Of a stretch of DNA of 64,000 bases, positions 35,903 through 39,647 are shown piece after piece (the first letter of the stretch is position 1; every line of letters starts with the position of its first letter). The position numbers and the translations under genes were made by a program. The notes below the pieces were generated by a model. That model saw only the letters and a program-made list of their open reading frames with translations, made no database searches and had not been told where the DNA came from. The stretch is from an uncultured Erythrobacter sp. (GTDB lineage: Bacteria; Pseudomonadota; Alphaproteobacteria; Sphingomonadales; Sphingomonadaceae). The DNA lies in assembly GCA_947498065.1 (NCBI GenBank), contig CANMIS010000002.1, positions 186,001-250,000 of the forward strand. Reading direction: 5' to 3'.

Positions 35903-36442
35903 ATGAAAACCGCAATGATTGCTGCTGTTGCCGTACTCTCGGCCAGCACCTCAGCTTTCGCTCAGGATGCGACCAGCTCGAACACTGACGTTGATGTCGA
36001 CAACGATGTCGTCGTCGTGGACACAGACGTGACGGTTGTTGAAGACAGCTTCGACAACAACACCGATAATTCTAACGACAGCTTCAACGACAACTCAAAC
36101 CGTGAGTTCAACGACAGCTTTGATGACAACCGCGATTACGTTGACAGCTTCGACGACAACTCGGACAACATCGCTCAGGGCGTAGGTTCGAACAAGACCT
36201 ACAATTTCAACGGCGCTGCAATCGTTGCAGACACCGCTCTCTCGAACGTCGTAACCGGCGTAGATGTTGACTACGGTGATCTTCAAGACACAGCTCGTCT
36301 CAGCAACAATCTCGTCAACCGTGGCAGCTCCTTCCGCAATTATGCAGGCAACAATGCGCTGAACCAGAACACTGGTGTGGGCGCGTCGCAAAATGCCAGC
36401 GTTACCATCGCTGTTTCAGGCGACAGTTTCGGCGGAAACTAA
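35903..36442 (+). CDS. secreted Asp/Asn-rich protein, candidate Fap-like fibre subunit
   Basis: Signal peptide MKTAMIAAVAVLSASTSAFAQ; NDSFNDNS/DSFDDN repeats; C-term ALNQNTGVGASQNASVTIAV. Confidence 0.65.
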   Translation: MKTAMIAAVAVLSASTSAFAQDATSSNTDVDVDNDVVVVDTDVTVVEDSFDNNTDNSNDSFNDNSNREFNDSFDDNRDYVDSFDDNSDNIAQGVGSNKTYNFNGAAIVADTALSNVVTGVDVDYGDLQDTARLSNNLVNRGSSFRNYAGNNALNQNTGVGASQNASVTIAVSGDSFGGN

Positions 36443-36523
36443 GCCCGCTTTCAGGTCTGCCTCGCGCCGCCTTCCCGCATGGGCGGGCTGGCGCAGGCAT
36501 CTGAAAAACAAGGAGTCTAAGCT

Positions 36524-36901
36524 ATGACTAAGATCAGCATGGCATTTGCACTGGCTGCCGCTGCGGTTGCTTCTCCGGCACTTGCCGAAGACGCGAAACC
36601 AGCGCCTGCAGAACAAAGCACACCTGCGGCAAAGTCAGTGTTTGCTGATGCCACTCCGGTGGACGAAGGCAAGCTGGCGAAAATCGCCGGTAAAGAAGAT
36701 CTCACCCAGCTGACCAATTCGGATCAGACGAACAGCGTTGACGGCAACAGCGTCGGCGACAATTCGAATACGGGCACGATCTCGATCAGCGACAATGCCT
36801 TTAACAACATGAATGGTATGACCATTCTCAATGCCAACACCGGCAATAACGTTGCGATCAACGCCTCTATCCAGGTGAACATCGCGCTTCCGGCGCAATA
36901 A
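36524..36901 (+). CDS. secreted Asn-rich protein, candidate Fap-like fibre subunit
   Basis: Signal peptide ...ASPALAE; VDEGKLAKIAGK motif; ILNANTGNNVAINASIQVNIALP. Confidence 0.65.
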   Translation: MTKISMAFALAAAAVASPALAEDAKPAPAEQSTPAAKSVFADATPVDEGKLAKIAGKEDLTQLTNSDQTNSVDGNSVGDNSNTGTISISDNAFNNMNGMTILNANTGNNVAINASIQVNIALPAQ

Positions 36902-36914
36902 GCCGTATTGCACT

Positions 36915-37634
36915 ATGGCATTTCGCGGCGTCTCACGAATGATCACGGCAATGGCAGGGGCTATGCTCCTGCCAGCTTGTGCCGCTGTACCCGCCAGTGA
37001 CGGCGGGTTTCAGCTCACAACGCATGCCGGCTCGCTGGCGCTGGAAACCGCGCCGCGCAGCATGGTCGAGACCCGCTATGACACTGTCGTTCGGCAGCAA
37101 TTTGATTTCAGCTGCGGTTCTGCTGCGCTCGCAACGCTGCTGACGTATCATTACGGCCGCGAACAGGGCGAAGGCCTGGTGTTTCGCGGCATGTGGCGTG
37201 ATGGCGATCAGGCAGCGATTCAGAAGCAGGGTTTCTCCCTGCTCGACATGAAACGTTACCTTGGCGCTCAGGGAATTGACGCAAACGGCTATAAGGTCTC
37301 GCTTGACCAAGTTCGCCAGGCTGAAACCCCTGGGATCGCGCTGATCGCGCCGAATGGATACCGCCATTTTGTGGTGGTTAAGGGCATTGAAGACGGTTTC
37401 GTCCTGGTCGGAGATCCCTCGCTGGGACTACGCCGGATGGACCGCGAAGAATTCGAAGAAACCTGGAACGGCGTCTATTTTGTCGTGACTGGTGGAGCAA
37501 AAATTAACCATCTTGCCTTTAATGCAGACGCGCAATGGGGCCGCGTCGCAGCATTTGGGGCGGACCAGGGCATGTTCCAACCGGTGAGTCAGCAAGTGCT
37601 GAACCTTACCGCGCCGGGCTACGGGGAATTTTAA
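36915..37634 (+). CDS. C39 family peptidase (FapD-like), lipoprotein-like N-terminus
   Basis: RQQFDFSCGSAALATLLTYHYG (Q/C), NGYRHFVVVKG (H), VGDPSLGLRRM (D); LLPAC lipobox-like. Confidence 0.85.
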   Translation: MAFRGVSRMITAMAGAMLLPACAAVPASDGGFQLTTHAGSLALETAPRSMVETRYDTVVRQQFDFSCGSAALATLLTYHYGREQGEGLVFRGMWRDGDQAAIQKQGFSLLDMKRYLGAQGIDANGYKVSLDQVRQAETPGIALIAPNGYRHFVVVKGIEDGFVLVGDPSLGLRRMDREEFEETWNGVYFVVTGGAKINHLAFNADAQWGRVAAFGADQGMFQPVSQQVLNLTAPGYGEF

Positions 37635-37636
37635 CG

Positions 37637-38146
37637 ATGCGATTTATTCGCTTTCTTGCTGTGATACTTGCCTTTGTGGCTGCACCTGTCGCTGCGCAAT
37701 CGCCATTTGGTGCGGTTGCTGCGATGGATGACGCTGCTTTGGCTGGTGAGCGCGGCGGTTTTATTCTTCCCGGTGGCATCGATCTGGACATGGCCATCAC
37801 CCAGGAAACCAGCATTGATGGAGAGCTCGTATTGCGCTCGTCCTATGTGCTGGCTGAGGGCGGACCCGTTGTATCGATTGAGCAAGTGTCTCAGGACGTT
37901 TCGGTGGAAACCGATGGCGACGATACAGGCAGCCGTATAACCATTTCGGTTCCTCATACTCAGGTTGTTCACCTGGCAGGCCGGGCAACCGGCAGTATCA
38001 TCACCAATTCCGCCGATGATCGCACCATTTCGACTGTCACCACCGTTGATCTCGACCTGTCGAGAATGGCGGTTGGTCAAATTGGTTCGCTTATTCCGTC
38101 TCTGGGCTCGCTTGCTGAGGATGCAGCAAACTTCAGTTTCGACTGA
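37637..38146 (+). CDS. secreted hypothetical protein with double-glycine-like motif
   Basis: MRFIRFLAVILAFVAAPVAAQ signal peptide followed by MDDAALAGERGG-FILPGG. Confidence 0.65.
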   Translation: MRFIRFLAVILAFVAAPVAAQSPFGAVAAMDDAALAGERGGFILPGGIDLDMAITQETSIDGELVLRSSYVLAEGGPVVSIEQVSQDVSVETDGDDTGSRITISVPHTQVVHLAGRATGSIITNSADDRTISTVTTVDLDLSRMAVGQIGSLIPSLGSLAEDAANFSFD

Positions 38147-38183
38147 CCTTAGTCGCGACTGTCCGGACGGATGGTAGTACACA

Positions 38184-39647
38184 ATGCGCAACGCATTTCT
38201 GAGCCTCGCTCTTATGGGCGCCGCTTTGCTCGCAGGGCCCGCAGTGGCCCAGGACGCTGGGCAAGGCGCTGGCACGCAGACGCGCGAAATCGAAATGGTT
38301 TCGCGGCCCGTGGTGCAGCCTGTTGGCGCACGCTCTGCCAAACCAGCGGCGCGCGTTGCTACAACACCGGACACACAGACTAAAACTCCCACAAATGCGG
38401 CTGAACTCGCGCAATTGCGCGCGGAAGTGTCGGCGCAGCGGGATTCGATCGCGCAGCAGATCAGCGCGCTTCAAGCTCAGCAAAACCAATTGGACGCGAT
38501 GGAGCGGCGCTTGGCGCTTGCTCTGGGCGAAGAGCCAGTGGTTCGCCGCGCCTCCGCTACGCCATCTCAGGCTCAGCCTGGTCCCGCGCCGCGCCGTGTT
38601 GCCTCTGCGGCCCCGCAAAGTGCTCAGGGCGCGCAAACAGGCGGTTCTCAGGGCCGTCCGCAGGGCACCGTGGGCGTCGCGCCAGAAGATGCCGATCGCC
38701 AACCAGAAATTGCTGCGCTGGGCCGTCAGGGCAGCGCAATCACCCAAAAGGGCAAATTGAGCGGCGAGGTCGAGTGGAGCTATGCCCGCGCAGACCGCAA
38801 CCGCGCGCTGTTCCGCGGCGTTGAAGTGGTCGAATCCGTCCTTGTTGGCGTGTTTGACATCAACGAAAGCCGCCAGGACGTGTTCACGCAAAAGGTCGGC
38901 CTGCAATATGGCCTGACCAATGATCTAGAAATTGGCGTCGATGTGCCGTTTATCGCCCGCTGGGACACCTCAGTCCTAACGCCGGTCGCGGGGCCAAATG
39001 CCAATGGCGAGACGCGCGAGATCGATAACAGCGCCAACGGCTATGGCATCGGCGATGTCGAAGTGCTGCTGCGCAAGCAATTGCACGCCCCTAAGGGCTT
39101 TGGCGCCTATCTGATCGGCAATCTGCAGGTTGATATTCCAACCGGAAAGGGCCCATTCGAACTCACCCGTAACCAATTTGGTGAAGCAAGCGAGGCGGCA
39201 ACCGGGTCAGGTTTCTGGGGCGTAACCCCGGGTATCACCGCGATCATCCCAAGCGATCCGGGCGTTCTGTTCGGCAGCCTCAGCTACACCAAGAACTTCG
39301 CGCGTGACGTCAATGCGGTTCTGCCGCCAGTGCAGATCGAGCGAGTGGATCCCGGTGACGTCATTTCCTTCAGCGCTGGCGTTGGCCTTGCGCTCAACCC
39401 GCGCCTGTCGCTCAACTTCGGCTATGCGCACAGTTGGGGCTTTGGAACTGAGACCACCACCCGGGCTCTAACCGAGGGTGCCGAAGCGGTTACACAGAGT
39501 TCGCGCGATCTCCAGATTGGACGCTTCCTGTTCGGGACGACCTACAAGATCAATCCGAAGACGAGCGTGAATTTCGGGATCGAAGCGGGCCTAACCGACG
39601 ATGCGACCGATATGCGCGCTGTCGTTCGCTTCCCGTTCGTATTTTAG
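38184..39647 (+). CDS. outer-membrane transporter with coiled-coil N-terminus (FapF-like architecture)
   Basis: Signal peptide, coiled coil LAQLRAEVSAQRDSIAQQISALQAQQNQLDAMERRL, beta-barrel ending AVVRFPFVF. Confidence 0.75.
   Translation: MRNAFLSLALMGAALLAGPAVAQDAGQGAGTQTREIEMVSRPVVQPVGARSAKPAARVATTPDTQTKTPTNAAELAQLRAEVSAQRDSIAQQISALQAQQNQLDAMERRLALALGEEPVVRRASATPSQAQPGPAPRRVASAAPQSAQGAQTGGSQGRPQGTVGVAPEDADRQPEIAALGRQGSAITQKGKLSGEVEWSYARADRNRALFRGVEVVESVLVGVFDINESRQDVFTQKVGLQYGLTNDLEIGVDVPFIARWDTSVLTPVAGPNANGETREIDNSANGYGIGDVEVLLRKQLHAPKGFGAYLIGNLQVDIPTGKGPFELTRNQFGEASEAATGSGFWGVTPGITAIIPSDPGVLFGSLSYTKNFARDVNAVLPPVQIERVDPGDVISFSAGVGLALNPRLSLNFGYAHSWGFGTETTTRALTEGAEAVTQSSRDLQIGRFLFGTTYKINPKTSVNFGIEAGLTDDATDMRAVVRFPFVF

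What the first reader, a model, noticed from the sequence alone, without database searches (positions are those of the whole stretch)
35903..39647. Compact Fap-like amyloid/hybrid secretion cassette in an alphaproteobacterium
Seen: five co-directional genes encode two signal-peptide, Asn/Asp-rich small proteins, a C39 peptidase with Q/C/H/D motifs, a Sec-exported protein with a double-glycine motif, and an outer-membrane protein with signal peptide + long coiled coil + beta-barrel. Established: in Pseudomonas fapABCDEF, FapD is a C39 peptidase, FapF is an outer-membrane barrel with an N-terminal coiled coil, and FapB/FapC are Asn-rich repeat amyloid subunits. Inference: this is a minimal, divergent Fap-type system. 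To my recollection fap operons were described mainly in beta/gamma/delta-proteobacteria, so an alphaproteobacterial variant with reduced repeats could be undescribed.
Basis: partly seen in the sequence, partly recalled or inferred. Interest (0 to 1): 0.85.

Follow-up and report, generated by a model that had tools for sequence, protein, structure and literature searches.

The report
Sister system of Fap amyloid secretion
A marine Erythrobacter carries, besides an ordinary fap amyloid operon, a compact five-gene relative of it that is widespread in Proteobacteria; its cargo proteins each end in one short repeat, and two of them carry a peptidase leader that points to what the Fap peptidase FapD cuts, which is still an open question.

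Summary
The five genes are real and at the stated places. Gene 3 is a FapD-type C39 peptidase with an intact catalytic set. Gene 5 is a FapF-type outer-membrane channel by sequence (PDB 5o67, 1e-27) and by predicted fold (TM about 0.84 to FapF). It is not a cut-down fap operon: the same genome holds a true fapB-fapF operon elsewhere. The C39 and channel proteins of 44 window-type loci form a separate sister clade, found in Alpha-, Beta- and Gammaproteobacteria. The set p1-p2-C39-p4-channel is conserved, with the channel co-directional or convergent. p1 and p2 share one C-terminal repeat; p4 has a related one; the link to the Fap repeat is weak. p2 and p4 carry, behind a Sec signal, a double-glycine-type leader; all FapE proteins checked carry the same signature, ending RG[K/R]. 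A strong stem-loop follows p1, as it follows fapC. Best reading: Sec exports all parts, the C39 protein trims p4 and p2 in the periplasm, the FapF-like trimer secretes them, and p1 is the abundant surface polymer. Machinery: shown by homology. Cleavage, secretion and amyloid: inferred. The most useful consequence is a concrete, testable FapD cleavage site.

The parts
35903..36442 (+). p1: Sec signal + N/D/S-rich acidic low-complexity region + C-terminal repeat; proposed major secreted subunit (FapC-like role)
   Evidence: conserved first gene of the cassette, 163-743 aa in relatives
36326..36418 (+). single C-terminal repeat of p1 (SSFRNYAGNNALNQNTGVGASQNASVTIAVS)
   Evidence: homologous to p2 tail: hhalign score 34.1 against shuffle maximum 11.1; weak match to Fap repeat profile 12.3 against 11.4
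36443..36523 (+). stem-loop directly after the p1 stop codon, before the p2 start
   Evidence: dG -38.4, z -2.9; same position strong in 38 relatives, mean z -3.1, against -0.7/-0.2/-0.4 after p2/C39/p4
36524..36901 (+). p2: Sec signal + C39-type leader + one C-terminal repeat; proposed minor/nucleating subunit (FapB-like role)
   Evidence: no Pfam or NCBIfam family
36659..36694 (+). leader of p2, VDEGKLAKIAGK (hydrophobic -12,-7,-4; G -2)
36794..36898 (+). C-terminal repeat of p2 (NAFNNMNGMTILNANTGNNVAINASIQVNIALPAQ)
36915..37634 (+). C39 cysteine peptidase, FapD-related, predicted lipoprotein; Q61 C67 H151 D167
   Evidence: NCBIfam C39_FapD 7.5e-44 (149.7 of 330 cut-off bits) and FilB 3.7e-35; invariant catalytic residues; sister clade of FapD
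37637..38146 (+). p4: Sec signal + true double-glycine leader + mid domain + C-terminal repeat-like tail; FapE counterpart
   Evidence: NCBIfam FapE 4e-4 over residues 1-48; p2-p4 tail hhalign 28.0 against shuffle maximum 12.7
37724..37759 (+). double-glycine leader of p4, MDDAALAGERGG
38184..39647 (+). FapF-like outer-membrane channel: signal peptide, helix 71-113, linker 120-172, plug helix 177-183, beta-barrel 192-486
   Evidence: NCBIfam FapF 1.1e-39; PDB FapF 5o67 1.2e-27; AF2 barrel mostly pLDDT over 85; Foldseek FapF ranks 1-18, best E 7e-22, TMt 0.80-0.88

Best explanation
The cassette is a periplasmic-peptidase/outer-membrane-channel secretion system, sister to Fap, that exports a surface polymer. 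All five products enter the periplasm by Sec (signal peptides; C39 by lipobox). The C39 peptidase binds the leader that follows the signal peptide of p4 and p2 (hydrophobic at -12 and -7, usually -4; Arg or Ala at -3; Gly at -2) and cuts behind position -1. Cutting p4, the FapE counterpart, primes the channel. The FapF-like trimer, with periplasmic coiled coil, linker and helical plug, then lets unfolded p2 and p1 through. Outside, the shared C-terminal repeats stack, p2 as starter and p1 as bulk subunit, while the long acidic low-complexity arm of p1 stays exposed. The stem-loop behind p1 keeps p1 in excess over the machinery. Shown by computation: homology of the peptidase and channel, conserved gene set, shared tails, leader signature, stem-loop. 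Inferred: cleavage, secretion, order of events, fibre (amyloid) state.
For: FapD and FapF homology by family, PDB sequence and fold. The p1-p2-C39-p4 set beside the channel across Alpha-, Beta- and Gammaproteobacteria. p1 and p2 are internal homologues, as FapB and FapC are (FapB-FapC control 59.9 against shuffle maximum 24.1). Strict leader pattern in p2 23/44, p4 32/42 and FapE 35/36, against shuffle means of 0.5, 1.0 and 1.4, and none in 43 p1 and 45 C39 proteins; 6 of 337 other ORFs; in 116 database relatives of p2, 89 strict and 113 loose against shuffle maxima of 4 and 23. Stem-loop after p1, and also between fapC and fapD in most fap operons checked. In Pseudomonas the active-site Cys of FapD is needed for FapC secretion and the substrate is unknown (PMC5557850).
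Against: The repeat link to Fap is weak (p2 16.0 against shuffle maximum 15.7; p1 12.3 against 11.4; p4 none), and the window copies miss the published spacing (X5, not X6, before the last Asn). FapE homology of p4 rests on its first 48 residues. The leader pattern was written after seeing sequences, and related sequences are not independent. Position -1 in p2 is often K or R, not G. No experiment; amyloid state untested. AF2 of p2 is low confidence.
Confidence: 0.6

Rival explanations
1. Same machinery, different cargo: the cassette exports soluble leader-bearing peptides or a non-amyloid surface coat or adhesin, like the Neisseria nap island (C39 + FapF homologue + GG peptides that cause autolysis), and does not make an amyloid fibre.
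For: Nap precedent with C39, FapF homologue and GG peptides (PMC11798529). p1 is strongly acidic, low-complexity and of very variable length (163-743 aa). One repeat per subunit is few for a stacked fibre.
Against: p1 and p2 share the tail repeat, as FapB and FapC share theirs. p1 has no leader, so the bulk product is not a leader peptide. The order major subunit, stem-loop, rest of machinery resembles fapC-fapD.
Confidence: 0.28
2. A decaying second copy of the fap operon that lost its repeats and is on the way out.
For: The genome has a full fap operon elsewhere; each subunit has only one repeat.
Against: All five ORFs are intact and the set is conserved over many genera; peptidase and channel form a separate clade next to, not inside, Fap.
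Confidence: 0.04
3. The channel is a COG4313-like uptake pore for hydrophobic molecules and the C39 gene serves another purpose.
For: COG4313 channel 4rl8 is the next fold match after FapF; Pfam calls the barrel Phenol_MetA_deg.
Against: 18 FapF chains score far better (7e-22 against 2e-11); the coiled coil is present; a C39 gene adjoins nearly every channel gene examined.
Confidence: 0.06

Closest known systems
Fap system (fapABCDEF) of Pseudomonas
   Same: Periplasmic C39 peptidase, FapF-fold channel with coiled coil and plug, two internally homologous Sec cargo proteins, a FapE-like third protein with the same leader signature, a stem-loop behind the main subunit gene
   Different: No FapA; one repeat per subunit with X5 spacing instead of three; p1 bulk is low-complexity N/D/S/T; p2 carries a leader (FapB does not); separate clade of C39 and channel; the channel is often convergent with the rest
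Neisseria nap island (NapP C39, NapF FapF-like, NapA-C GG peptides; PMC11798529)
   Same: C39 + FapF homologue + GG-leader cargo
   Different: Nap cargo are small cationic peptides (under 10 kDa) linked to autolysis; here cargo are acidic Sec-exported proteins with shared tail repeats. Not compared by alignment here
Acinetobacter fil cluster (FilA-FilF)
   Same: C39 (FilB) and FapF/FilC-family barrel; FilA has the same leader right after its signal (MDDAALSAATGQ)
   Different: C39 and channel are far more distant (long branches); no p1, p2 or p4 tail profile match in the stretch
C39 domains of bacteriocin/NHLP exporters (PCAT1, LagD type)
   Same: Peptidase fold and leader logic (hydrophobic -12/-7/-4, G at -2)
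   Different: No ABC transporter; the peptidase is Sec-exported and acts in the periplasm

Membership tests
Fap system | FapD-type periplasmic C39 peptidase with Cys/His/Asp | tested here: met
   but 149.7 bits is under the FapD cut-off of 330
Fap system | FapF channel: coiled coil, linker, plug helix, 12-strand barrel | tested here: met
   (136.5 bits, under the cut-off of 700); trimer not testable
Fap system | FapB and FapC with (usually three) X15-G-X4-N-X3-G-X6-N-X7 repeats | tested here: not met
   one tail repeat each, G-X4-N-X3-G-X5-N; profile similarity weak
Fap system | FapE homologue | tested here: inconclusive
   4e-4 over residues 1-48 only; same leader signature
Fap system | FapA chaperone | tested here: not met
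   no such gene in the cassette; FapA is often lost in true fap operons too (PMC3792158)
Fap system | Peptidase and channel fall inside the Fap clade | tested here: not met
   C39 tree 100/96 split; OM tree one group, SH-aLRT 100 (C39 in that larger tree only 68)
Fap system | Extracellular amyloid fibres | not testable with these tools
   needs bench work
Nap-type C39/FapF peptide export | Small cationic GG-leader peptides as cargo | tested here: not met
   cargo 125-179 aa with Sec signals; p1 net charge -22
Fil pilus-like cluster | FilB/FilC as best family match and FilA, FilD-F present | tested here: not met
   FapD/FapF models score better; neighbours are p1, p2, p4

The most novel reading that the evidence does not exclude
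A large, undescribed lineage of secretion systems, sister to Fap, uses a dual-leader route: cargo goes through Sec, then a second, double-glycine-type leader is read in the periplasm by a stand-alone C39 peptidase before passage through a FapF-type channel. The same leader is the FapD site in FapE (RG[K/R] before Phe/Tyr), so Fap, Fil, Nap and this lineage share one processing rule.
Probability: 0.5. Interest if true: 0.82.

Novelty: new variant of a known kind. Interest (0 to 1): 0.66.

Why it matters
The FapD substrate has been an open question since 2017, and Fap proteins were said to lack canonical C39 sites (PMC5557850). The comparison gives a precise candidate site, found in every FapE examined and in two cargo proteins of a wide sister family. 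It may also explain why the site was missed: in FapE the residue before the predicted cut is Lys or Arg, so a tryptic digest, the method used there, makes the same end whether or not FapD cuts. Earlier surveys counted such extra FapD and FapF hits as false positives of larger families (PMC3792158); here they turn out to mark a coherent system with its own cargo. It also shows true fap operons in Sphingomonadales, outside the Beta/Gamma/Delta range reported in 2013.

Tried and rejected
(1) Orphan FapF-like channels: a first, one-strand scan seemed to show many class-2 channels without a C39 gene; a two-strand scan showed the cassette convergent or downstream. Rejected. (2) Upstream response-regulator and OMP genes (33973-35714) as part of the system: present only in the two closest strains. 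Rejected. (3) Known leader families: NCBIfam and Pfam scans of leader fragments gave only FapE itself and one weak Lactococcin-leader hit, 0.23. No independent family support. (4) p1-p4 tail homology and p4-Fap repeat homology: not above shuffles. (5) AF2 of p2: low confidence, one short helix at residues 48-54 that falls on the leader; not used as evidence. (6) p2 profile against PDB: nothing. (7) Pfam DUF7064/MspA hits of p4: single members only. (8) Literature: no held paper ties fap to Sphingomonadales or describes a stem-loop after fapC; the held library is incomplete, and the genus list of the 2018 survey figure could not be read.

Full report
WHAT IS THERE. The window lies in an Erythrobacter genome (G000, contig C2:186001-250000; relatives CANMOQ010000002 and others at 95-96% in the OM protein). 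p1 (179 aa) and p2 (125 aa) match no curated family; the C39 protein matches Peptidase_C39 and, best of all, C39_FapD (7.5e-44); p4 matches FapE over its first 48 residues (4e-4); the OM protein matches FapF (1.1e-39). All NCBIfam scores are below the curated cut-offs, so NCBI would not name these genes fap.

CHANNEL. phmmer finds FapF chains 5o67/5o65/5o68 at about 1e-27 over residues 168-487. The AF2 model from 34 sequences has a helix at 71-113, a disordered linker, a plug helix at 177-183 and a barrel at 192-486, mostly with high confidence. Foldseek against PDB puts 18 FapF chains first (E 7e-22 to 2e-16, TM to target 0.80-0.88), then the COG4313 channel.

TWO SYSTEMS IN ONE GENOME. The genome has a second FapF/FapD locus at C2:468776-472362 with the order LuxR regulator, small protein, FapB (1.8e-19), FapC (5.1e-23), FapD (5.4e-66), FapE (7.4e-20), a peptidoglycan-binding protein, FapF (7.9e-104). 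That is a true fap operon in an alphaproteobacterium. In 301 Sphingomonadales genomes the FapF family splits into two score classes, 320-405 bits (15 genomes, canonical operons) and 115-182 bits.

THE WINDOW-TYPE CASSETTE. In the lower class I fetched 24 loci from other genomes. One (L050) is a divergent fap operon with several repeat-like units. Of the other 23, 22 show a C39 gene in the stretch; in L042 the stretch ends before the expected place. Three layouts occur: all co-directional (window, L035-L039, L051-L055, L057, Croceicoccus plasmid L132, Polymorphobacter plasmid L134, Cupriavidus metallidurans L133), channel convergent with p1-p2-C39-p4 (most others), and channel first in the same direction (L042, L045, L046). 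A profile of p2 also finds the set in other alphaproteobacterial families and in other classes of the phylum, among them Halomonas, Photobacterium and Cupriavidus. It is in 25 of 251 genomes of the own family. All named database copies of p2 but one are called hypothetical protein, and none has a Pfam domain.

PHYLOGENY. The C39 tree splits 31 window-type rows from 25 Fap rows at 100/96. In larger quick trees the 44 window-type rows are one side of a branch for C39 (SH-aLRT 68) and for the channel (SH-aLRT 100), next to Fap of Alpha- and Beta/Gammaproteobacteria. So it is a sister lineage, not a reduced fap operon.

CARGO. p1 consists of a signal peptide, a variable low-complexity part (N/D/S/T-rich, in some lineages Gly-rich) and a conserved tail; p2 of signal, leader and tail; p4 of signal, leader, mid domain and tail. 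Tail profiles: p1-p2 34.1 against a shuffle maximum of 11.1; p2-p4 28.0 against 12.7; p2-Fap repeat 16.0 against 15.7; p1-Fap repeat 12.3 against 11.4 (60 column shuffles each). p1 and p2 are thus clearly internal homologues; kinship with the Fap repeat is only suggestive, though the aligned register (G-X4-N-X3-G) agrees.

LEADER. Behind the signal peptide p4 reads [LMV]x[DE]xELxxxRGG-F, p2 reads [VL]x[DE]xxLAxxxG[RGK], FapE reads [LVI]xDxELxxMRG[KR]-[FY]. This is the classical C39 double-glycine leader layout (hydrophobic at -12, -7, -4; Gly at -2; established knowledge of bacteriocin leaders). Strict pattern: p2 23/44, p4 32/42, FapE 35/36; shuffles give 0.5-1.4 on average; p1 0/43, C39 0/45; 6 of 337 other ORFs. 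Most misses differ at one position. Among 116 database relatives of p2, 113 fit the loose pattern against a shuffle maximum of 23. FilA of Acinetobacter shows it too, and the Neisseria nap island pairs GG peptides with a C39 protein and a FapF homologue. Published work found FapD catalysis essential, its substrate unknown, FapE the only fully N-terminally processed Fap protein, and canonical C39 sites lacking (PMC5557850, PMC6173800). The leader proposed here fits those data and lies at the N-terminus of FapE.

STEM-LOOP. The first 90 nt behind the p1 stop fold strongly in 38 loci (mean z -3.1) with unrelated sequences, against -0.7, -0.2 and -0.4 behind p2, C39 and p4. The same place, between fapC and fapD, has stem-loops in most Alpha- and other fap operons checked, not all. 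Inference: it sets a high level of the main subunit, which makes p1 the FapC counterpart.

MECHANISM AND LIMITS. See best explanation. The machinery is shown by homology. Peptide cleavage, secretion and fibre formation are inferred. The chief rival is a non-amyloid secreted polymer or peptide.

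Noticed in passing
G000 C2:468776-474000 (L005:6774-13746, - strand): A complete canonical fapB-fapF operon in the same Erythrobacter genome, with a LuxR regulator and an extra peptidoglycan-binding protein gene between fapE and fapF; the extra gene recurs in nearly all Sphingomonadales fap operons fetched.
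   Followed up: partly
L005, L064-L076, L077-L098, between fapC and fapD: Strong stem-loops directly behind fapC in most fap operons checked; not mentioned in the fap papers read.
   Followed up: partly
window 39660-39742: Very long, almost perfect hairpin (dG -85.6, z -12.6) between the convergent channel gene and an M20 amidohydrolase gene; only copy in the window.
   Followed up: partly
L122:4988-10370 (G434): Tandem duplication of p1-p2-C39-p4 with diverged p1 copies, next to one channel gene.
   Followed up: no
L130 (G369): A decayed copy: p2 with a stop, short C39 and channel ORFs, in a genus whose other members have intact copies.
   Followed up: no
L050 (G131): A divergent fap-like operon on a long branch, with several repeat-like units and a short FapE-like protein with a true GG leader (LSDEELSTKRGG); possible intermediate between Fap and the sister type.
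   Followed up: no
L040-L049, L056, L058-L063: In convergent layouts the channel gene usually lies directly behind a sigma54-type (NtrC-like) or Crp/Fnr-type regulator gene, suggesting dedicated regulation.
   Followed up: no
L136 (Acinetobacter baumannii VB1190 record): FilA carries the same leader signature; filB is not annotated there and its C39 frame is in two pieces.
   Followed up: no
window 33973-35714: A response regulator with Hpt domain overlapping a beta-barrel OMP gene, upstream of p1, conserved only in the nearest strains.
   Followed up: partly
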